From contig NZ_CP027667.1 of assembly GCF_003008575.1 (NCBI RefSeq), forward strand, positions 2,050,501 to 2,114,500: a stretch of DNA of 64,000 nt, in the 5' to 3' direction. A program made the position numbers and the translations under genes. A model generated the notes under the pieces. That model saw only the letters and a program-made list of their open reading frames with translations. It was not told the origin of the DNA and did not search any database. Numbering within the stretch: position 1 is the stretch's first letter; the number at the start of each line of letters is the position of its first letter. This document shows positions 43,204 through 50,649 of this stretch, piece by piece. Source of the stretch: Melaminivora suipulveris. GTDB taxonomy: Bacteria; Pseudomonadota; Gammaproteobacteria; Burkholderiales; Burkholderiaceae_C.

Positions 43204-45006
43204 TTACAGCGATGAAGCCCGCACCACGGCCAGTCGGTGCGTGGCTCGCGTCGCCGCCACATAGCGCACACGCGCTTGCGCCGCGGCCTGTTCGGGCTCG
43301 GGCGTGAGGCCGGCCTCGCCCTCCACCAGCGCCACCACCGGAAACTCCAGCCCCTTGCTGACTTTCATCGTCATCAGCTTGATCGCGTTCGCCAGCGGGT
43401 CGTAGTCGCCGGTGCCCAGGCGGTTTTGCACCGGCATGCCGCGCCGCGCCAGGGTGCGGGCGCACAGGTCGCGGGCTTTGGCATCGCGGCACAGCACGGC
43501 CATGTCGCCCCAGGCGAAGCCATCGGCGTAGGCGCCCTGCAACAGCACGGCCACCTTGTGCGCCTGCTCGGGCAGGCTGGGCAGATCGATGACCAGGGGC
43601 TCGGGGCCGTCCCGGCCGCAGCTGACTGGCTGCACCAGCGGCACGCCATCGTCGTCCCGGTCCTCGGCGGTCAGCAGGCCGCCGGCCATGGCGTGCGCGG
43701 TCGCGAGGATCTGCCGCGTGTTGCGGTAGTTGATGCGCAGGATGCTGGTGCGCCCCTGCGCCTGGATGCCCACGCTCTTGAAGCTGAAGTTCTTCTTGCG
43801 GCCGCGCTCGTAGATGCTTTGCGCGTCGTCGTACAGCACCAGCAGGCTGTTGGTGGCCGGGTCCACCATCTGCGTGACGAGCTTGAGCCACTCGGGCGCG
43901 AAGTCGTGTCCCTCGTCGATCAGCACGGCCAGGTACTGGCCCTGCGGTACGTGGCCGCGCTGCACGCCGTCGATCACGCGCTGCACCATGTCGGCGAAGA
44001 ACGCATCGGGCGGCAGCTGCGCGGGCGGCAGCGCCAGCCCGAAGGCCACCAGCTGCGCGCGTGCCCACTTGTGAAAGTGCACGCAGTGCACGCGCTCCTG
44101 CAAGCCCTTGGCGGTCATGGTGGCAGCCAGCTTGACAGCCAGCGGCTCGTTGTAGCAGAGCACCAGGATGGGCTTGCCGCTGGCGTTGGCGCGCGCCAGG
44201 TGCTCGGCGCGCCAGCCCAGGATCATGGTCTTGCCCGAGCCGGCCACGCCGTGGATCACACGGTGGCCATCGCCCAGCGAGCGCGCCAGCTGCTCCTGCT
44301 GCAAGTCCATCACGCGCAGCATGTCGGGCACCTGCGCGTCCTCGGCGGCGTCGTCGAACAGGCCCGCCTGATCGGGCACGCGCACCTGCGGAAAGAGCAG
44401 CCAGCGCACGCGGTCCAGCTGCGGCAGGCCCAGGGTCTGGTAGCGCTCGTAGGGGAACATCTCCCACAGCCGGCTCTGGAATTCCTCGGCGTCCACGCCC
44501 TCGGTCATTTCGTCGCTGCAGATCACGCGCCGCGCGGCAACGGCCTGCGCCAGCCCGGCGTCGGTAAATTGCCTGCGCGTGATGTTGGCCAGCACCACGC
44601 CATAGCTCCAGGCAAAGACCAGCTCGCCCTTGCGCGGGCCGTCGGGGTGGACCAGGCGCTGGTCGCGGCGCAGGGTGTCGAGCACCTCGCGGGCGTAGTT
44701 GCGCGCCTGCGCGTCGGGCGACTGGATGGATTTGGGCTGGCCGGTGGCGCCGTCCAGGATGGTCCAGCGGTCCCGGTCGGCCTGCACGATGGTGGACAGG
44801 CGAAAGTCCTTCACCTCCAGGATCAACAGGCCGCGGCTGGGGTGCAGCACGATGAAGTCCGGGTGCACCTGGCGCGGGCCGACGGGCACGTCGTACCACA
44901 GCAGGTAGTCATCCTCCAGCTTGGCCTCCAGACGCTCGGCCAGGCGGCGCTCGCCGCCCGTCATGCGTGGCTTGCAGGAGTTCAGCGAGGGGATCAGGGT
45001 GGCCAT
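43204..45006 (-). CDS. NERD-domain UvrD/Rep-like helicase
   Basis: A 600-residue protein joining an N-terminal NERD (nuclease-related) domain to a superfamily 1 helicase. NERD: ERRLAERLEAKL, then HPDFIVLHPSRGLLILEVKD, with the Asp and Glu-x-Lys of the nuclease fold. Helicase: Walker A GVAGSGKT (about residue 250), Walker B LIDEGHD, YDDAQSIYERG, INYRNT, VSKGLEF and YVAATRATHRL. All core motifs are present, so both activities are plausible. Biological role is unknown. It is not in a visible defence cluster. No partner gene is coupled to it. Confidence 0.92.
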   Translation of the reverse strand: MATLIPSLNSCKPRMTGGERRLAERLEAKLEDDYLLWYDVPVGPRQVHPDFIVLHPSRGLLILEVKDFRLSTIVQADRDRWTILDGATGQPKSIQSPDAQARNYAREVLDTLRRDQRLVHPDGPRKGELVFAWSYGVVLANITRRQFTDAGLAQAVAARRVICSDEMTEGVDAEEFQSRLWEMFPYERYQTLGLPQLDRVRWLLFPQVRVPDQAGLFDDAAEDAQVPDMLRVMDLQQEQLARSLGDGHRVIHGVAGSGKTMILGWRAEHLARANASGKPILVLCYNEPLAVKLAATMTAKGLQERVHCVHFHKWARAQLVAFGLALPPAQLPPDAFFADMVQRVIDGVQRGHVPQGQYLAVLIDEGHDFAPEWLKLVTQMVDPATNSLLVLYDDAQSIYERGRKKNFSFKSVGIQAQGRTSILRINYRNTRQILATAHAMAGGLLTAEDRDDDGVPLVQPVSCGRDGPEPLVIDLPSLPEQAHKVAVLLQGAYADGFAWGDMAVLCRDAKARDLCARTLARRGMPVQNRLGTGDYDPLANAIKLMTMKVSKGLEFPVVALVEGEAGLTPEPEQAAAQARVRYVAATRATHRLAVVRASSL

Positions 45007-45312: not shown

Positions 45313-45516
45313 TCAGCGCGAGCGCCGCGTGCCGACGTTCACGTCCACCGTGCCGAACACGGTGACGCCGCTGGCGTCGTCCTGCTGGCTGCCGGGCGCG
45401 CCGGACTGGCGCGCGCCGCTGCCCGTGGCCGTGCAGCCGCCCAGCGCAGCGGCACAGGCCAGCGCGGCCAGCACGCAGCGCGCGGCGGCAGCGGCGGTGC
45501 GTGCCGTCATCGTCAT
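45313..45516 (-). CDS. Small lipoprotein
   Basis: A 67-residue ORF with an Arg-containing start, Ala-rich hydrophobic helix and lipobox LGGC, so probably a lipid-anchored small protein. The mature part (about 39 residues) is polar and ends TVFGTVDVNVGTRRSR. Its ATG overlaps the topB stop (ATGA at 45513-45516), suggesting translational coupling to topB. A second in-frame ATG at 45510 is possible. No function assignable. Confidence 0.7.
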   Translation of the reverse strand: MTMTARTAAAAARCVLAALACAAALGGCTATGSGARQSGAPGSQQDDASGVTVFGTVDVNVGTRRSR

Positions 45517-48455
45517 CCTTCGCCCCCCAGGTGCTTGCCCAGGATGCCCGCCAGCTCGAACATGCCCACCCGGTCCTTGCCGAAGACGGCGCGCAGCTTG
45601 TCGTCGGCATTGATGCTGCGCTTGTCCTGCGGGTCCTGCAGGTTGTGGGCCTTGATGTAGTCCCAGGTTTTCTTCATGGCCTCGGTGCGGGGTACGGGCT
45701 CCGGGCCGATCACGGCGGCGAGCTGGGCGCTGGGCGCCTTGCCGGCGGCCGTGCTGGGCTTGCGCGGGGCTTTGGTGGCGGCGGCCTTCTTTGCGGCCGG
45801 TTTGGAGGTTTTTTGGGTGTTTGTCGGCGTCCTTGCTGCGCTGGCAGCTACTTTTTTGCTAGCAGGAGCTGCGGCGGTCTTGCGCGCTGGGTACTTGCCC
45901 TCGCGCTGCTCGAACTCAAAGTTGACCTTGCCGGCGGCGGCGTCCCAGGCCAGGTGGGCCTTGAACGGGCGGCGCGTGCGCATGCTGACGAACTTGTCCA
46001 GCAAGTCGGTCTTGCCGGTGGCCAGCAGCTTGTGCATCTGCGCGCGCTCCACGGGCTGCTGCAGGATGATCTTGCCGCTCTTGAAGGTGCATGACGGCGC
46101 CGGCTGCTGGGCCGTGGGCACGGCGCGACTGCAGACGTAGTTGCTGCCGTGCTCGTACACCGGCGCGCCGCAGACGGGGCACGGGCCCAGGCTTTCCTGG
46201 CCGCTGAAATCCACCAGCTCGCCAGCGCCCTCACCGGCTGCCGCGTCGTCGCCGAAATCGAACTCCAGCTTGTAGTTGCCCGCTTCCTCGTCGCGCACGA
46301 TGGCCACCTCGGCCGTGAACGGCCAGCCGGCCTTGGAGCGGAAGCCCTCCAGCGGGCCGATGCGGCGCTCGCGCAGCAGGCTTTCGGCTTCAGCCGTCTC
46401 GAAGGTGCGCCCGGCGGGCGACTTGGTGAACGAGAAGCCGCAGCCCTCGCCGGCGCCATTCGCGCCCGTGCAGACATAGCGGCGGTAGTTTTCCTTCACC
46501 ACGCCGCCGCAGTTCGGGCAGGGCGAAGCCAGCGTGGCGTAGTCGCCGGGGATGCTGTCGCGGTCGTATTCCTTGGCCTTTCGGACGATCTTTTCCGTCA
46601 TCGCCTGGATCTGCTGCATGAAGGCGTCGCGGGCCAGCTCGCCGCGCTCCATCTGCGCCAGCTTGTATTCCCACTCGCCGGTGAGCTCGGCGCGCGACAG
46701 CTCGTGCACGCCCAGGCCGCGCAGCAGCGTCATCAGCTGGAAGGCCTTGGCCGTGGGGATCAGCTCGCGGCCCTCGCGCAGCATGTATTTCTCGGTAAGA
46801 AGCCCTTCGATGGTGGCGGCGCGCGTGGCGGGCGTGCCCAGGCCCTTTTCCTGCATGGCGCTGCGCAGTTCCTCGTCTTCCACCTGCTTGCCGGCGCTCT
46901 CCATGGCGCCCAGCAGCGTGGCTTCGGAGTAGCGGGCGGGGGGTTTGGTCTTCAGGCCCTTGGGCTCCACCGTCTCGGCCAGCGGGCACTCGCCGGGGCG
47001 CACTGCCACCAGCGGCTGGCCCTTGTCACCGTCCTTGCCGCCTTCGGCATCAATGGCTGCCTCCTTGCCGTAGATCGCCAGCCAGCCGGGCTTGACCAGC
47101 ACCTTGCCGTCGGTGCGGAAAGAGTGCCCCTCCACGCGGCTGATGCGCGTGGTGACCAGGTATTCGGCACTGGGGAAGAACACCGCCAAAAAGCGCCGCA
47201 CCACCAGGTCGTAGAGCTTTTGCTCGGCCTCGGACAGGCCGCTGGGCGCCTGCGTGGTGGGGATGATGGCGAAGTGGTCGCTGACCTTGCTGTTGTCGAA
47301 GACCTTCTTGGACGGGCGCACGTAGCCCTCGTCCAGCGCCTGCTGGGCGAACGGCTCCAGGTGGCGCATGCCGCTGGTGGCCAGCATGGCCATGGTGTTC
47401 TTGGCCACGGGCAGGTAGTCCTCGGGCAGGGCGCGCGAATCGGTACGCGGGTAAGTCAGCGCCTTGTGCCGCTCGTACAGGCTTTGCGCCAGCGCCAGCG
47501 TGGTCTTGGCCGAGAAGCCGAAGCGCCCGTTGGCCTCGCGCTGCAGGCTGGTCAAATCGAACAGCAGAGGCGAGGCCTGCGTGGTGGGCTTGGCCTCTTC
47601 GGTGACGGTGGCCGGCTTGCCGCGCACGGCGTCGGCGATGCGCTGCGCGTCGGCCTGCACCCACAGCCGGTCGGCGCGGGCTTCCGGGTCGTCGCTTTTC
47701 TTCCATTGCGGGTCGAACCACTTGCCCAGGTACTGGCCGGCCTCGGCAGCAAAGCCGGCGTGCACCTCCCAGTAGTCGCGCACGACGAACTTGCGGATCT
47801 TTTCTTCGCGCTCCACCACCAGCGACAGCGTGGGCGTCTGCACCCGGCCCACGGTGGTCAAAAAGAACCCGCCGCCCTGCGAGTTGAACGCCGTCATGGC
47901 GCGCGTGCCGTTGATGCCCACCAGCCAGTCGGCTTCGCTCCTGCTGCGCGCGGCGTCGGCCAGGCCGCGCATCTGCGCGTCGCTGCGCAAATTCGCAAAG
48001 CCGTCGCGGATGGCCTGGGGCGTCATGCTTTGCAGCCACAGGCGGCGCACGGGTTTGCCAAGCCCCCCCTTGGCGCCGCCGGCGTACTGCTCGATCAGGC
48101 GGAAGATCAGCTCGCCCTCGCGCCCCGCGTCGCAGGCGTTGACCAGTTCCGTCACGTCCTTGCGCCTGGCGAGCTTGACGACCGCGTTCAGGCGGCTCTT
48201 GGTCTTGTCCACGGGCTTCAAGTCGAAGTACGGGGGGAGGACGGGCAGGTGGGCAAAGCTCCACTTGCCGCGCTTGACGTCGAATTCCTCGGGCGCCTGG
48301 ATTTCCACCAGGTGGCCCACGGCGCTCGTGACCACGTAGCGCTCGTTTTCAAAATGATCCTCGTGCTTGTCGAACCTGCCCGCCACGGGCGTGAGGGCGC
48401 GCACGATGTCCTGTGCCACCGAGGGCTTTTCTGCGATTACCAGAGTCTTGCTCAT
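45513..48455 (-). CDS. topB: DNA topoisomerase III with C-terminal SWIB domain
   Basis: Type IA topoisomerase that relaxes and decatenates DNA. The 980-residue protein has an N-terminal Toprim domain (LVIAEKPSVAQDI; DAGREGELI), the active-site Tyr in LTYPRTDSR, and C-terminal Zn-finger-like CPNCGG and CPVCGAP segments. A Lys/Ala/Pro-rich linker follows (about 859-912, with KPAAKKAAATKAPRKP). The last 68 residues (about 913-980) are a SWIB/MDM2-like domain (RTEAMKKTWDYIKAHNLQDP, INADDKLRAVFGKD). Part of the linker (about 864-886) is encoded by repeat copy 9. ATG 48455 is preceded by GGAAAAG. It is divergent from a SET-domain gene. Confidence 0.95.
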   Translation of the reverse strand: MSKTLVIAEKPSVAQDIVRALTPVAGRFDKHEDHFENERYVVTSAVGHLVEIQAPEEFDVKRGKWSFAHLPVLPPYFDLKPVDKTKSRLNAVVKLARRKDVTELVNACDAGREGELIFRLIEQYAGGAKGGLGKPVRRLWLQSMTPQAIRDGFANLRSDAQMRGLADAARSRSEADWLVGINGTRAMTAFNSQGGGFFLTTVGRVQTPTLSLVVEREEKIRKFVVRDYWEVHAGFAAEAGQYLGKWFDPQWKKSDDPEARADRLWVQADAQRIADAVRGKPATVTEEAKPTTQASPLLFDLTSLQREANGRFGFSAKTTLALAQSLYERHKALTYPRTDSRALPEDYLPVAKNTMAMLATSGMRHLEPFAQQALDEGYVRPSKKVFDNSKVSDHFAIIPTTQAPSGLSEAEQKLYDLVVRRFLAVFFPSAEYLVTTRISRVEGHSFRTDGKVLVKPGWLAIYGKEAAIDAEGGKDGDKGQPLVAVRPGECPLAETVEPKGLKTKPPARYSEATLLGAMESAGKQVEDEELRSAMQEKGLGTPATRAATIEGLLTEKYMLREGRELIPTAKAFQLMTLLRGLGVHELSRAELTGEWEYKLAQMERGELARDAFMQQIQAMTEKIVRKAKEYDRDSIPGDYATLASPCPNCGGVVKENYRRYVCTGANGAGEGCGFSFTKSPAGRTFETAEAESLLRERRIGPLEGFRSKAGWPFTAEVAIVRDEEAGNYKLEFDFGDDAAAGEGAGELVDFSGQESLGPCPVCGAPVYEHGSNYVCSRAVPTAQQPAPSCTFKSGKIILQQPVERAQMHKLLATGKTDLLDKFVSMRTRRPFKAHLAWDAAAGKVNFEFEQREGKYPARKTAAAPASKKVAASAARTPTNTQKTSKPAAKKAAATKAPRKPSTAAGKAPSAQLAAVIGPEPVPRTEAMKKTWDYIKAHNLQDPQDKRSINADDKLRAVFGKDRVGMFELAGILGKHLGGEG
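45808..45866 (+). repeat. Dispersed stem-loop repeat, copy 9, inside topB
   Basis: Plus-strand TTTTTTGGGTGTTTGTCGGC, GTCCTTGCTGCGCTG, then GCAGCTACTTTTTTGCTAGC. It lies within the topB linker region, antisense, and is read in frame. Confidence 0.6.
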
Positions 48456-48507
48456 ATCTTTTCCAACGACCGGATGCACCACGGTGCGTGCCTACAATGG
48501 CCGCCTT

Positions 48508-48542
48508 CGCGTGCGCACGCACGCGCACACCTGTGTGCATAT
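48508..48542. promoter_or_regulatory. Alternating purine/pyrimidine tract with two palindromes between topB and the SET gene
   Basis: Bases 48508-48530 alternate pyrimidine and purine for 23 bp (C/G/A steps), followed by an 11-bp alternating run (48532-48542). It includes the perfect palindrome GCGTGCGCACGC (48509-48520) and GCACAC-CT-GTGTGC (48525-48538). It is the divergent promoter region of topB and the SET gene. Such tracts can flip to Z-DNA under negative supercoiling; whether it acts as an operator is unknown. Confidence 0.5.
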
Positions 48543-48569
48543 CCACGCTAACAGAGTTTTTTTCCGCCC

Positions 48570-49079
48570 ATGCCCGCCAAGCCATCAGCCCCCAAAAAGC
48601 CCGCCGACGGGCGGCGCATCCAGACCCGGCGCTCGGGCGTGCATGGCAAGGGCGTGTTCGCCGTGCAGGCCATCGCCGAGGGCGAGGTCATCATCGAGTA
48701 CACGGGCGAGGTCATCAGCTGGGACGAAGCCCAGGCGCGCCACCCGCACGACGCCAAGCAGCCCAACCACACGTTTTATTTCCACGTCGATGAAGACCAC
48801 GTCATCGACGCAAAGTTCGGCGGCAACTCCTCGCGCTGGATCAACCACAGCTGCGACCCCAACTGCTGGGCCGACGAGCAGGATGGCCGCATCTTCATCA
48901 CCGCGCTGCGCAATATCGCCGCCGGCGAAGAGCTGAACTACGACTACGGCCTGACCACCTCCGAGCGCTACACCAAGAAGCTCAAGGCCGAATACCCCTG
49001 CTGGTGCGGCGCGGCCCACTGCCGCGGCACGCTGCTGGCGCCCAAGCGCGGCTGGTCGCCGCCCGGCCCGCGCGCATAA
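48570..49079 (+). CDS. SET-domain protein lysine methyltransferase
   Basis: A 169-residue stand-alone SET domain that should methylate protein lysines using S-adenosylmethionine. Seen: GVHGKGVFA (residues 23-31), IIEYTGEVI, the pseudoknot NHSCDPN (92-98) and ELNYDY (121-126), plus a post-SET-like Cys cluster CWCGAAHC (144-151) that with Cys95 can bind zinc. All cofactor and catalytic elements are present. The N-terminal 20 residues are Lys/Pro-rich. birA starts three bases after its stop, so it heads a small operon (SET, birA, SPOR). It is divergent from topB, whose linker is a possible substrate. Confidence 0.92.
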   Translation: MPAKPSAPKKPADGRRIQTRRSGVHGKGVFAVQAIAEGEVIIEYTGEVISWDEAQARHPHDAKQPNHTFYFHVDEDHVIDAKFGGNSSRWINHSCDPNCWADEQDGRIFITALRNIAAGEELNYDYGLTTSERYTKKLKAEYPCWCGAAHCRGTLLAPKRGWSPPGPRA

Positions 49080-49082
49080 ACG

Positions 49083-49931
49083 ATGGCGAGCGCGGCGCTG
49101 ATCCCGGTCTGGCCGGCTGAAAGCCTGTGGCAGCGCATCGAGCCGCTGCTGCCAGGCTTTAGCGTCGAGGTGCTGGCCAGTGTGGATTCGACCAGCAGCG
49201 AGCTGATGCGCCGCGCGCGCGCCGGTCGCACCGAGCCCACGTTGCTGATTGCCGAGACGCAGACCGCCGGGCGCGGCCGTCTGGGTCGCCAGTGGCACAG
49301 CGCCGGCGTGTACGAAGGCACGGGCGTGGTGCCGGCGCTGACCTTCTCGCTGGGGTTGATGCTGGCGCCGCGCGACTGGTCCGGCCTGTCGCTGGCCGTG
49401 GGCGTGGCGGTGGCCGAGAGTCTGGACGGCAGCGCCGCAGAGCCGCGCATCTGCCTGAAGTGGCCCAACGACCTGTGGCTGCGGGACGGCCGCAAGCTGG
49501 GCGGCATCCTGGTGGAGACGGCCAGTTTCGCGGCCGGCCCGCAGACTGCCGGCCAGCCGCGCTACGTGGTGATCGGCGTCGGCCTGAACGTGTTGCCGGT
49601 GCTGTCCGGCGACCTGACCAACACGCCGGCCTGCCTGCGCGAGCTGGACGGCGCCCTGACCGCGACGCGCGCGCTGGGCCAGATCGCCGAGCCGCTGGTG
49701 CACGCCCTGCTGGGCTTTGCCGAGCACGGCTTTGCGCCGTTCCAGCCGCGTTTTGCCCGGCGCGACGTGCTCGCCGGGCGCGCCGTGACCCTGTCCGGCG
49801 GCCAGCACGGCACGGCGCACGGCGTGAGCGACGAGGGCGCGCTGCTGGTGCATACGGCCGGCGGCATGCAGACCATCACCAGCGCCGAGATCAGCGTGCG
49901 CCCCCAGGGCGCGGCCGCCGCGCCGCGCTGA
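49083..49931 (+). CDS. birA: Biotin-[acetyl-CoA-carboxylase] ligase
   Basis: Attaches biotin to biotin carboxyl carrier protein. The 282-residue protein has the catalytic GRGRLGRQWHS loop, KWPNDLWL and KLGGILVET, plus a C-terminal SH3-like domain. There is no N-terminal winged helix, so it is the monofunctional ligase, not a repressor. It lies three bases after the SET gene and four bases before the SPOR gene, in one operon. Confidence 0.94.
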   Translation: MASAALIPVWPAESLWQRIEPLLPGFSVEVLASVDSTSSELMRRARAGRTEPTLLIAETQTAGRGRLGRQWHSAGVYEGTGVVPALTFSLGLMLAPRDWSGLSLAVGVAVAESLDGSAAEPRICLKWPNDLWLRDGRKLGGILVETASFAAGPQTAGQPRYVVIGVGLNVLPVLSGDLTNTPACLRELDGALTATRALGQIAEPLVHALLGFAEHGFAPFQPRFARRDVLAGRAVTLSGGQHGTAHGVSDEGALLVHTAGGMQTITSAEISVRPQGAAAAPR

Positions 49932-49935
49932 AGCC

Positions 49936-50649
49936 ATGCTGCGCCTGGCCGTCCTCGTGCTGCTGCTGGCCAACGCCGGCTACTACGCCTGGTCGTCGGG
50001 GTGGCTGGCGGATTGGGGCCTGGCGCCCACCAGCGACGCAGAGCCGCAGCGGCTGCGCCAGCAGATCGAGCCGGACCGGCTGCGCCTGCTGCCGCCGGCC
50101 GGCGCCGAAGGCGATGCCACCGCACCCGCGCCACCCGCCGCCCCACCCGCGCAGGTGCTCGCCAGCCAGCCACAACCCGCAACGGCCCCAGCCGCGCCGC
50201 AGCCCGGCGTGTGCCTGCAGGCCGGCTCCTTCGACGCGCGCCAGGCCGATGCCCTGCGCGCCACGCTGGCCGCGTGGCCGCAAGGCAGCTGGCAGCTGGA
50301 CGCCACGCCAGTGGCGGGACGCTGGATGGTCTACATGGGCCGCTTCGCCGACGAGGAGGCGCTGGCGCGCAAACGCTCCGAGCTGCGCGCGCTGAAAGTG
50401 CCTTACGACCGGCCGGGCGCGGCACTGGAGCCCGGCTTGTCGCTGGGCCGCTTTTCCACCGAGGAGGCGGCGCAGCGCGGCATGGCGCAGTTGGCCGCGC
50501 AGGGCGTGCGCACCGCGCGCGTGGTGCAGGAGCGCGCCGAGACTTCGGCCTTCACCCTGCGCCTGCCTGCGGCCACGCCGGCTCAGCGCGCACAACTGCA
50601 AGCCGCCGGCGACGCCCTGGTTGGCAAGACCCTGCGGCCCTGCGACTGA
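49936..50649 (+). CDS. SPOR-domain protein
   Basis: A 237-residue protein with an N-terminal transmembrane helix (LAVLVLLLANAGYYAW), an Ala/Pro-rich periplasmic linker, and a SPOR-like domain (CLQAGSFDARQADALRATL; YMGRFADEEALARKRSEL) that binds denuded peptidoglycan at division sites. Related genes follow birA in other Burkholderiales as far as I recall. Not a known named member. Confidence 0.85.
   Translation: MLRLAVLVLLLANAGYYAWSSGWLADWGLAPTSDAEPQRLRQQIEPDRLRLLPPAGAEGDATAPAPPAAPPAQVLASQPQPATAPAAPQPGVCLQAGSFDARQADALRATLAAWPQGSWQLDATPVAGRWMVYMGRFADEEALARKRSELRALKVPYDRPGAALEPGLSLGRFSTEEAAQRGMAQLAAQGVRTARVVQERAETSAFTLRLPAATPAQRAQLQAAGDALVGKTLRPCD

What the first reader, a model, noticed from the sequence alone, without database searches (positions are those of the whole stretch)
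45513..49079. SET-domain methyltransferase divergent from a SWIB-topoisomerase: possible chromatin-like unit
A complete stand-alone SET domain (48570-49079) faces topB, whose linker has several Lys in KAPRK/AAKKA contexts. Chlamydiae pair SET and SWIB proteins with histone-like substrates. Shared control and a ready-made lysine-rich substrate suggest the SET protein may methylate the TopB tail or nucleoid H1-like proteins. I know of no described system of this kind in Comamonadaceae.
Basis: inference. Interest (0 to 1): 0.8.

Follow-up and report, generated by a model that had tools for sequence, protein, structure and literature searches.

The report
Conserved SET–topoisomerase pair with Z-DNA-prone promoter
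In one large family of mostly free-living water and soil bacteria, a histone-methyltransferase-like gene usually sits back to back with a DNA topoisomerase gene, and the short stretch between them usually keeps an unusual zig-zag DNA sequence that could sense how tightly the chromosome is wound.

Summary
In detail: a complete SET-domain gene (48570-49079) lies 114 nt from, and head-to-head with, a topoisomerase III gene with a SWIB tail. It is not chance. SET occurs in 142 of 150 sampled genomes of the family, head-to-head with topB in 136 of 141 SET loci examined, and followed by birA in 140. SET is better conserved than birA in 135 of 135 comparisons, with catalytic and post-SET residues kept: a housekeeping-type enzyme.

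The proposed substrate (TopB tail) is not supported. SET pairs with SWIB-less TopB (70) as often as with SWIB-TopB (66). SET-less relatives mostly keep tail lysines, and another family pairs SET with a lysine-poor TopB tail.

The unexpected find lies between the genes: a strictly alternating purine-pyrimidine tract (48508-48530, the longest in its genome), conserved as a pattern, not as letters. It averages 24 nt against 10 in shuffles and follows a TACAAT -10 box. Letters show no hairpin or dyad signal. I read it as a Z-DNA-prone, supercoiling-sensitive element shared by facing promoters for topB and SET-birA. That function is inference; the pattern and its spread are measured. Close-pair substitution tests are only suggestive, and 19 of 136 loci lack it.

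The parts
48570..49079 (+). SET-domain protein, stand-alone lysine-methyltransferase-like enzyme with CxCx4C post-SET motif (169 aa)
   Evidence: PF00856 90.7 bits; MLL/Set1 SET domains best in PDB; S22, H25-G26-G28, E43-Y44, N92-H93-C95, E121-L122, D125-Y126, C144/C146/C151 at least 97% conserved in 141 family loci
45513..48455 (-). topB, DNA topoisomerase III with C-terminal Lys/Ala linker and SWIB domain (980 aa)
   Evidence: Pfam and NCBIfam PRK14724
45735..45908 (-).
   Evidence: tail analysis; coordinates derived from residue numbers
45528..45734 (-). SWIB domain of TopB
   Evidence: PF02201, residues 908-976; place
48493..48498 (+). TACAAT, inferred -10 box of the SET-birA transcript
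   Evidence: exact TACAAT within 45 nt left of the tract in 100 of 117 loci, 0.6% in shuffles. The generic promoter scan of this stretch found no full sigma-70 site
48508..48530 (.). alternating purine-pyrimidine (Z-DNA-prone) tract, 23 nt exact; a second short run follows at 48532-48542
   Evidence: family statistics; only (YR)x11 match in the 3.75-Mb genome; window census
48545..48553 (-). inferred extended -10 (TGnTAnnnT on the minus strand) of the topB transcript, facing the SET promoter across the tract
   Evidence: pattern in 64 of 117 loci right of the tract, 6% in shuffles; function inferred
49083..49931 (+). birA, biotin--protein ligase without the N-terminal repressor domain, 3 nt after SET: presumed operon
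   Evidence: TIGR00121 and BPL domains; same strand downstream of SET in 140 of 141 loci
49936..50649 (+). SPOR-domain protein, next in the presumed operon
   Evidence: PF05036

Best explanation
This is a conserved divergent housekeeping-type unit of a Comamonadaceae-type family: topB on one side, SET-birA-SPOR on the other. SHOWN: the arrangement, its near-universality, conservation of the SET active site, and a gap that in 117 of 136 loci holds an alternating purine-pyrimidine tract of 15-56 nt, usually after TACAAT and before a second recurring element. INFERRED: (1) the two transcripts start facing each other on either side of the tract, so that both leaders contain it; (2) the tract is selected for its ability to flip to left-handed Z-DNA under negative supercoiling, so that expression of the topoisomerase and of the SET-birA operon is coupled to local DNA topology; (3) SET is an intracellular protein-lysine methyltransferase, most plausibly of basic Lys/Ala tails of nucleoid-type proteins, not an injected effector and not a TopB-dedicated enzyme. 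The sign of the regulation (topB up or down when Z-DNA forms) cannot be told from sequence.
For: Family draw: SET in 141 of 150 genomes, 142 with G318, whose SET start is visible at a contig end. Of 141 SET loci, 136 have topB in reach and all 136 are head-to-head, median gap 122 nt; 79 of the 80 named genome loci have topB's start in reach and all 79 are head-to-head (organisms overlap with the first set). SET more identical to the window protein than BirA is in 135 of 135 loci; SET and TopB distances correlate, r 0.60. Tract: mean exact alternating run 24.2 nt upstream of SET versus 9.9 in dinucleotide shuffles; longest run of the whole locus in 118 of 136, or 100 of 136 if one break is allowed. 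TACAAT left of it in 100 of 117 (null 0.6%). Letters inside are independent, without dyad symmetry (0.097 vs 0.096) or RNA-fold excess (z -0.3): alternation, not a hairpin or a letter motif, is what recurs. Indels in the tract 86 even, 2 odd; flank 126 even, 192 odd. Of the 19 genomes whose runs of 26 nt or more were printed, 16 have one in the SET leader. SET-less genomes keep 17-21 nt of it in 3 of 6 loci read, so it is not tied to SET alone.
Against: No expression, structure-probing or enzyme data. Even-length indels are also what dinucleotide slippage gives. The depletion of transversions is strong only in the broad pair set, where flank misalignment may inflate it and each pair is counted from both sides (59 seen, 174 expected); restricted to closer, ungapped pairs it fades (16 vs 26.8, p 0.04 at 80% identity; 5 vs 10.8, p 0.07; 4 vs 6.2, p 0.5; 1 vs 2.0, p 0.7; 1 vs 1.4, p 1). 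19 of 136 loci have no run of 15 nt or more, three of them with a gap of more than 600 nt. Three of 6 SET-less loci have lost it or keep only short pieces. The right-hand -10 is clear in only 64 of 117, and no consensus sigma-70 site was found in the window. The estimated flipping threshold (about -0.04) rests on recalled parameters, and an 18-nt tract elsewhere in the window scores the same. No such tract was seen in the 11 SET leaders and 47 topB leaders of other families that were examined. SET's substrate is unknown.
Confidence: 0.42

Rival explanations
1. One reading: SET methylates lysines of the TopB Lys/Ala linker (and so tunes topoisomerase or SWIB function).
For: Direct neighbours under apparently shared control. 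Most SET-paired TopB proteins of the family, with or without SWIB, end in Lys/Ala-rich stretches. One SET-less genus (L231, L236) has lost every tail lysine.
Against: Pairing is independent of SWIB (66 with, 70 without). Three of four SET-less genera read keep tail lysines. Family f6 pairs SET tail-to-tail with topB whose tail has 2 Lys. KK in 14 of 16 SET+ versus 19 of 24 SET- TopB tails in other families.
Confidence: 0.15
2. Plain synteny plus drift: SET, topB and birA stay together only because this gene order is ancestral; SET acts on an unrelated target (for example a translation protein) and the tract is a decaying dinucleotide microsatellite without function.
For: Outside the family, SET and topB lie on one contig in 16 genomes and within 20 kb in 10 of these (places), so the neighbourhood is old. 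Even-length indels fit slippage. Transitions keep alternation for free. Close-pair tests do not show clear selection.
Against: Position, TACAAT spacing and alternation persist across the family while letters are scrambled. The run is the longest of its genome here, and 16 of 19 printed genomes with runs of 26 nt or more have one at SET. It persists in three SET-less loci.
Confidence: 0.33
3. SET is a secreted effector that modifies chromatin of a eukaryotic host, as reported for SET proteins of some pathogens.
For: Effector-type SET proteins have been reported in Burkholderia thailandensis and Bordetella (PMC3980110, passages). A weak overlap with a Legionella effector model, 45.9 bits against a cut-off of 550.
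Against: Near-universal in the family draw, whose named relatives include Rhodoferax, Limnohabitans, Polaromonas and Hydrogenophaga, free-living by recall. Operon-like with birA, divergent from topB, and more conserved than birA. No secretion gene among the five window proteins scanned.
Confidence: 0.05
4. SET methylates a small molecule, as BurB does with methionine.
For: BurB, a SET-domain enzyme of Burkholderia thailandensis, makes S-methylmethionine (PMC12542666, passages and start of abstract).
Against: Full MLL-like SET with post-SET cysteines in 141 of 141 loci. The term post-SET does not occur in the BurB paper. BurB was not compared by sequence here.
Confidence: 0.05

Closest known systems
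Chlamydial SET / SWIB / SWIB-topoisomerase I set (CT737 NUE, CT460, CT643)
   Same: A SET protein, a stand-alone SWIB and a type IA topoisomerase with a SWIB tail in one genome; [quoted passage not shown]
   Different: Here the topoisomerase is topoisomerase III, the SWIB tail is dispensable for pairing, and SET is physically linked to topB. A 2025 paper states that SWIB-TopA is not found beyond Chlamydia (PMC12445093, abstract and outline); TopB is a different topoisomerase, so there is no conflict.
Reported Burkholderiales SET effectors (BtSET, Bordetella LegAS4-like protein)
   Same: SET-domain proteins of the same order (PMC3980110, passages).
   Different: Orthology was not tested; I did not fetch those proteins. 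The family studied here keeps its SET as a chromosomal housekeeping-type gene.
Archaeal and chlamydial SET enzymes acting on chromosomal proteins (Go1-SET on MC1-alpha; cpnSET on Hc1, disputed)
   Same: SET acting on a basic DNA-binding protein of the cell's own chromosome (PMC3980110 and PMC6426960, passages).
   Different: No Hc1 match, and no HC2 match over the cut-off, was found in this genome; substrate unknown.
Z-DNA-prone promoter elements such as the RY box of the Halobacterium bop gene (recalled, not found in a call)
   Same: Alternating purine-pyrimidine run near a transcription start, expected to respond to supercoiling. That alternating CG repeats turn to Z-form, helped by negative superhelical stress, is stated in PMC1971269 (passages).
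   Different: Much longer (the length of the bop box is recalled), recurring through a family as a pattern, and placed between a topoisomerase gene and a SET-birA operon.

Membership tests
SET-domain lysine methyltransferases (PF00856) | complete SET fold with SAM (GxG), NHSC and ELxYDY motifs | tested here: met
   PF00856 residues 26-127, profile 1-105; core motif residues at least 97% conserved in 141 loci; narrow patterns matched NHSC in 139, GxG in 134 and ELxYDY in 124 of 141
SET-domain lysine methyltransferases (PF00856) | post-SET zinc motif CxCx4C | tested here: met
   present in 141 of 141 loci
SET-domain lysine methyltransferases (PF00856) | transfers methyl to a protein lysine | not testable with these tools
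   needs enzyme assay
Chlamydia-type SET/SWIB/topoisomerase chromatin set | SET, stand-alone SWIB and SWIB-topoisomerase in one genome | tested here: met
Chlamydia-type SET/SWIB/topoisomerase chromatin set | SWIB fused to topoisomerase I (TopA) | tested here: not met
   the fusion is to topoisomerase III, and the genome has only one other SWIB match, stand-alone
Chlamydia-type SET/SWIB/topoisomerase chromatin set | Hc1/HC2 H1-like substrate protein | tested here: inconclusive
   Hc1: none; HC2: only a sub-threshold, frame-broken match here, 60 of 150 family genomes over the cut-off; such Lys/Ala-rich models are prone to match by composition
Injected SET effector | secretion to a eukaryotic host | not tested
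   distribution and context argue against it
Z-DNA-type regulatory element | long alternating purine-pyrimidine run, more than chance, recurring in relatives | tested here: met
Z-DNA-type regulatory element | selection on alternation rather than letters | tested here: inconclusive
   no letter, dyad or fold signal; transversion depletion strong in broad pairs, weak to absent in close ones
Z-DNA-type regulatory element | forms Z-DNA in vivo and alters transcription | not testable with these tools
   needs footprinting and reporters

The most novel reading that the evidence does not exclude
A family-wide, pattern-conserved Z-DNA switch sits between facing promoters of a topoisomerase and of a SET protein-methyltransferase/biotin-ligase operon, so that a bacterium reads its own DNA supercoiling through a B-to-Z transition and sets topoisomerase and protein-methylation output together.
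Probability: 0.3. Interest if true: 0.88.

Novelty: new variant of a known kind. Interest (0 to 1): 0.6.

Why it matters
In the reviews seen here, bacterial SET proteins are discussed mainly as effectors against eukaryotic hosts. Here one is a near-universal chromosomal gene of a family rich in free-living genera, linked to a topoisomerase, which makes an internal role directly testable in harmless strains that also offer natural SET-less relatives. Independently, a long alternating purine-pyrimidine tract kept as a pattern in most examined members of a bacterial family, at a topoisomerase promoter, would be a rare natural case in which to test whether Z-DNA has a conserved regulatory job in bacteria.

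Tried and rejected
TopB tail coevolution: looked striking at first (SET-less L231 and L236 have no tail lysine) but was not upheld once the other SET-less genera, family f6 and 40 other TopB tails were included. SWIB as the reason for pairing: rejected (66 with, 70 without).

First substitution test of the tract gave 133 transitions and 0 transversions, but that zero is forced by requiring an exact run in both sequences; discarded and replaced, which are weaker. RNA hairpin or cruciform in the leader: rejected as the general explanation; one exceptional locus, L141, has an inverted repeat in place of the tract. Hc1 as substrate: no match. The generic promoter scan gave no full site.

Five of the 141 SET loci are not counted head-to-head with topB: two are cut by contig ends (L095, L190), one genome has a second SET head-to-head instead (L220, see L238), and in two (L122, L135) no topB lies in the stretch read. 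L235 was first counted as SET-less and then corrected. Of the eight SET-less family genomes, six were read at topB; G248 has no topB match and G277 was not fetched. Start codons of SET were assigned by script; for L107 and L136 the computed gaps (4 and 0) are artefacts of an upstream start. My first motif counts used narrow patterns; in the 10 sequences printed the part of the core shown is present, with variants such as NHCC and NHGC in L135 and L227.

Literature searches for this pair and for a Z-DNA tract in this family showed, among the 12 to 20 papers that each one listed, none describing either; several matched many more papers than were listed (up to 421), and the library is open-access PubMed Central only. 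Seen as passages: PMC3980110 (plus its section 4), PMC6426960, PMC12542666, PMC9060813, PMC1971269; abstract and outline: PMC12445093; all others as listings only. PMC9060813 was looked at for H1-like proteins and not used further.
Full report
WHAT IS THERE. The window carries topB (45513-48455, minus), a 114-nt gap, then SET (48570-49079), birA (49083-49931) and a SPOR-domain gene (49936-50649) on the plus strand. SET is a full-length PF00856 match whose best matches among solved structures are MLL1/Set1 catalytic domains. It carries HGxG, NHSCxPNC, EELxYDY and post-SET CxCx4C motifs. TopB is topoisomerase III with a Lys/Ala linker and SWIB domain. The genome has this one SET match and two SWIB matches, TopB and a 96-aa stand-alone SWIB protein.

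HOW GENERAL IT IS. In 200 genomes drawn from the order, 50 have a SET domain. In 150 drawn from the family, 141 have it, and a further one (G318) shows the start of SET at a contig end (L235), so 142. Eight have none: G220, G222, G234, G248, G264, G277, G331, G333. Of 141 SET loci read (140 fetched plus the window), 136 contain topB and all 136 are head-to-head; median gap 122 nt, 115 below 200 nt. The other five are explained in Tried and rejected. birA follows SET on the same strand in 140 of 141, within 150 nt in 135. In ten loci the gap is 600 nt or more; in the two opened, a TlpA-like thioredoxin gene on topB's strand lies between (named from its WCPFC motif, not scanned). A separate collection with names gave 80 loci, mostly titled Acidovorax, Comamonas, Rhodoferax, Limnohabitans, Polaromonas, Hydrogenophaga, Variovorax and kin; a few titles name other taxa (L342, L360), presumably mislabelled bins. 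In 79 of these topB's start is inside the locus, and all 79 are head-to-head. These two sets overlap in organisms and are not independent.

OUTSIDE THE FAMILY. In f6 the pair is tail-to-tail (G005, G054, G097). By my reading of the places, SET and a topB over the cut-off share a contig in 16 SET+ genomes of other families; in 10 of the 16 they lie within 20 kb (the three f6 genomes, G132, G095, G130, G192, G057, and G030 and G074 if their contigs are circular), and in six they are farther apart (G006, G037, G055, G116, G141, G149). In the others the two genes are on different contigs, or topB is missing. The neighbourhood is therefore probably older than the family.

SET IS A CONSTRAINED ENZYME. 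Core positions of the active site and post-SET are at least 97% conserved in 141 loci, as is a block on the probable substrate side (RHP...P.HTF.F). Its median identity to the window protein is 70%, against 72% for TopB, 51% for BirA and 41% for SPOR; SET beats BirA in 135 of 135. SET and TopB distances correlate (r 0.60, 135 loci). In all six SET-less loci read, topB faces birA directly.

IS TopB THE SUBSTRATE? If the tail were the reason for the pair, tail and SET should go together. They do not. SET is paired with SWIB-less TopB in 70 and SWIB-TopB in 66 of 136 loci (one of the 70 is cut by a contig end). Of four SET-less genera with topB read, {L231, L236} have no lysine in the tail, but {L232, L237} keep 20 each including the SWIB, L233 keeps 10 and L234 keeps 9. 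Family f6 has SET with a TopB tail holding 2 lysines. In 40 TopB proteins of other families, 14 of 16 with SET and 19 of 24 without have at least one KK in the tail (p 0.68; six of these tails were taken as the last 80 residues because the core end motif was not found, and two of the SET+ genomes, G006 and G138, have only weak SET matches). These 40 were chosen by me out of the TopB-bearing genomes to span families. The Lys-bearing tail is thus a general trait of TopB here.

THE TRACT. Aligning the gap for 36 close loci revealed a recurring layout: TACAAT, about 8 nt, a tract of alternating pyrimidines and purines, then an A/T-rich element just before SET. Over 136 loci the longest exact alternating run in the 300 nt before SET (plus 60 nt) averages 24.2 nt (median 24, up to 56), against 9.9 in dinucleotide shuffles and a mean maximum of 13.3 in the rest of each locus; it is the longest run of its locus in 118 (100 if one break is allowed) and at least 15 nt in 117. 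In the window it is 23 nt (48508-48530), the longest of the 64 kb and the only (YR)x11 match in 3.75 Mb; the reversed control pattern has two matches per strand, one of which must be the same run shifted by a base, so no other run in the genome reaches 23 nt. Across the family draw, 68 of 150 genomes have a run of 26 nt or more; of the 19 whose places were printed, 16 have one in the SET leader, three (G292, G270, G218) only elsewhere, and one of the 16 (G219) also elsewhere. TACAAT is exact within 45 nt left of the tract in 100 of 117 loci (0.6% in shuffles); where it matches at 5 or 6 of 6, it lies 7-11 nt away in 77 of 111, so the tract begins about where transcription should start. On the right, ANNNTANCA (a minus-strand extended -10, TGnTAnnnT) occurs in 64 of 117 (6% in shuffles). 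In loci where topB's start codon lies a few bases from TACAAT (for example L113, L119, L164, L189) its promoter should lie in or beyond the tract, which fits a leftward promoter on the right side. The facing-promoter model is inference.

WHAT IS SELECTED. In 97 loci with at least 19 nt, 90 start with a pyrimidine; steps are CG 49%, CA 32%, TG 13%, TA 6%, each close to what letter frequencies predict; no dyad symmetry (0.097 vs 0.096) and little folding excess over alternation-preserving permutations (mean z -0.29 and -0.32). So neither a hairpin nor a fixed letter motif explains it; alternation does, and that is the sequence requirement of Z-DNA (established knowledge). Indels within the tract are 86 even and 2 odd, flank 126 and 192, which slippage would also produce. 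Transversions are depleted in 74 pairs, each counted from both sides (59 seen, 174 expected), but the flank there may be misaligned; with ungapped closer pairs the deficit is 16 versus 26.8 (p 0.04), 5 versus 10.8 (p 0.07), 4 versus 6.2 (p 0.5), 1 versus 2.0 (p 0.7), 1 versus 1.4 (p 1) at identity limits of 80, 85, 88, 90 and 92%. I count this as suggestive only. Among the six SET-less loci read, the tract remains in L231 (21 nt), L236 (17 plus 12) and L234 (17), is weak in L233 (11 and 10), and is gone in L232 and L237. It therefore is not tied to SET as such. It was not seen in 11 SET leaders of other families (longest run 12) nor in 47 topB leaders outside the family (longest 15). A rough estimate with recalled energy parameters puts the flipping threshold at superhelical density about -0.04, but an 18-nt tract elsewhere in the window scores the same, so energetics alone do not single it out.

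HOW IT MAY WORK. Two polymerases leaving this gap in opposite directions push negative supercoils into it (twin-domain principle, established knowledge). A Z-prone tract there would absorb that stress and could alter start or escape of both promoters, tying topB and SET-birA output to topology, as topoisomerase genes often are (recalled). SET itself most likely methylates an internal basic protein. The candidates here are Lys/Ala tails (TopB; the stand-alone SWIB with its short AKK start); none is shown.

KNOWN OR NEW. Chlamydiae have a SET/SWIB/SWIB-TopA set, discussed in print as a likely remodelling complex (PMC6426960, passages). SWIB-TopA is described as chlamydial only (PMC12445093, abstract and outline). 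Bacterial SET genes in free-living species have been noted before (PMC3980110, section 4). Among the papers listed by my searches none describes the SET-topB pair or this tract.

Noticed in passing
window 43204-45006 (minus), after topB: NERD-UvrD protein, strong match to PADLOC candidate defence model C3a187 (501.7 bits); a relative was found in only 4 of the 141 family stretches read (window, L126, L153, L157), though those stretches reach only a few kb past topB, so it looks like a variable neighbour.
   Followed up: partly
L093, L126, L131, L139, L147, L155, L165, L167, L184, L213: Gap of 600-713 nt between topB and SET; in the two opened (L147, L213) it holds a TlpA-like thioredoxin gene on topB's strand.
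   Followed up: partly
L141, upstream of SET: In place of the alternating tract this locus has an inverted repeat (AACCA...TTGGTT) between TACAAT and SET.
   Followed up: no
family genomes such as G255, G325, G286, G343, G337: HC2 (H1-like) matches overlap or lie within a few bases of the stand-alone SWIB match (places): stand-alone SWIB proteins there may carry an H1-like Lys/Ala tail, like TopB.
   Followed up: partly
L243, L244, L247 SET proteins: Some SET proteins of other families carry their own Lys-rich C-terminal tail.
   Followed up: no
G000:C1:3594581-3596527: The genome has a second topoisomerase III-like gene (678-aa open frame), scoring higher on TIGR01056 than the window topB (726.8 vs 536.6 bits).
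   Followed up: no
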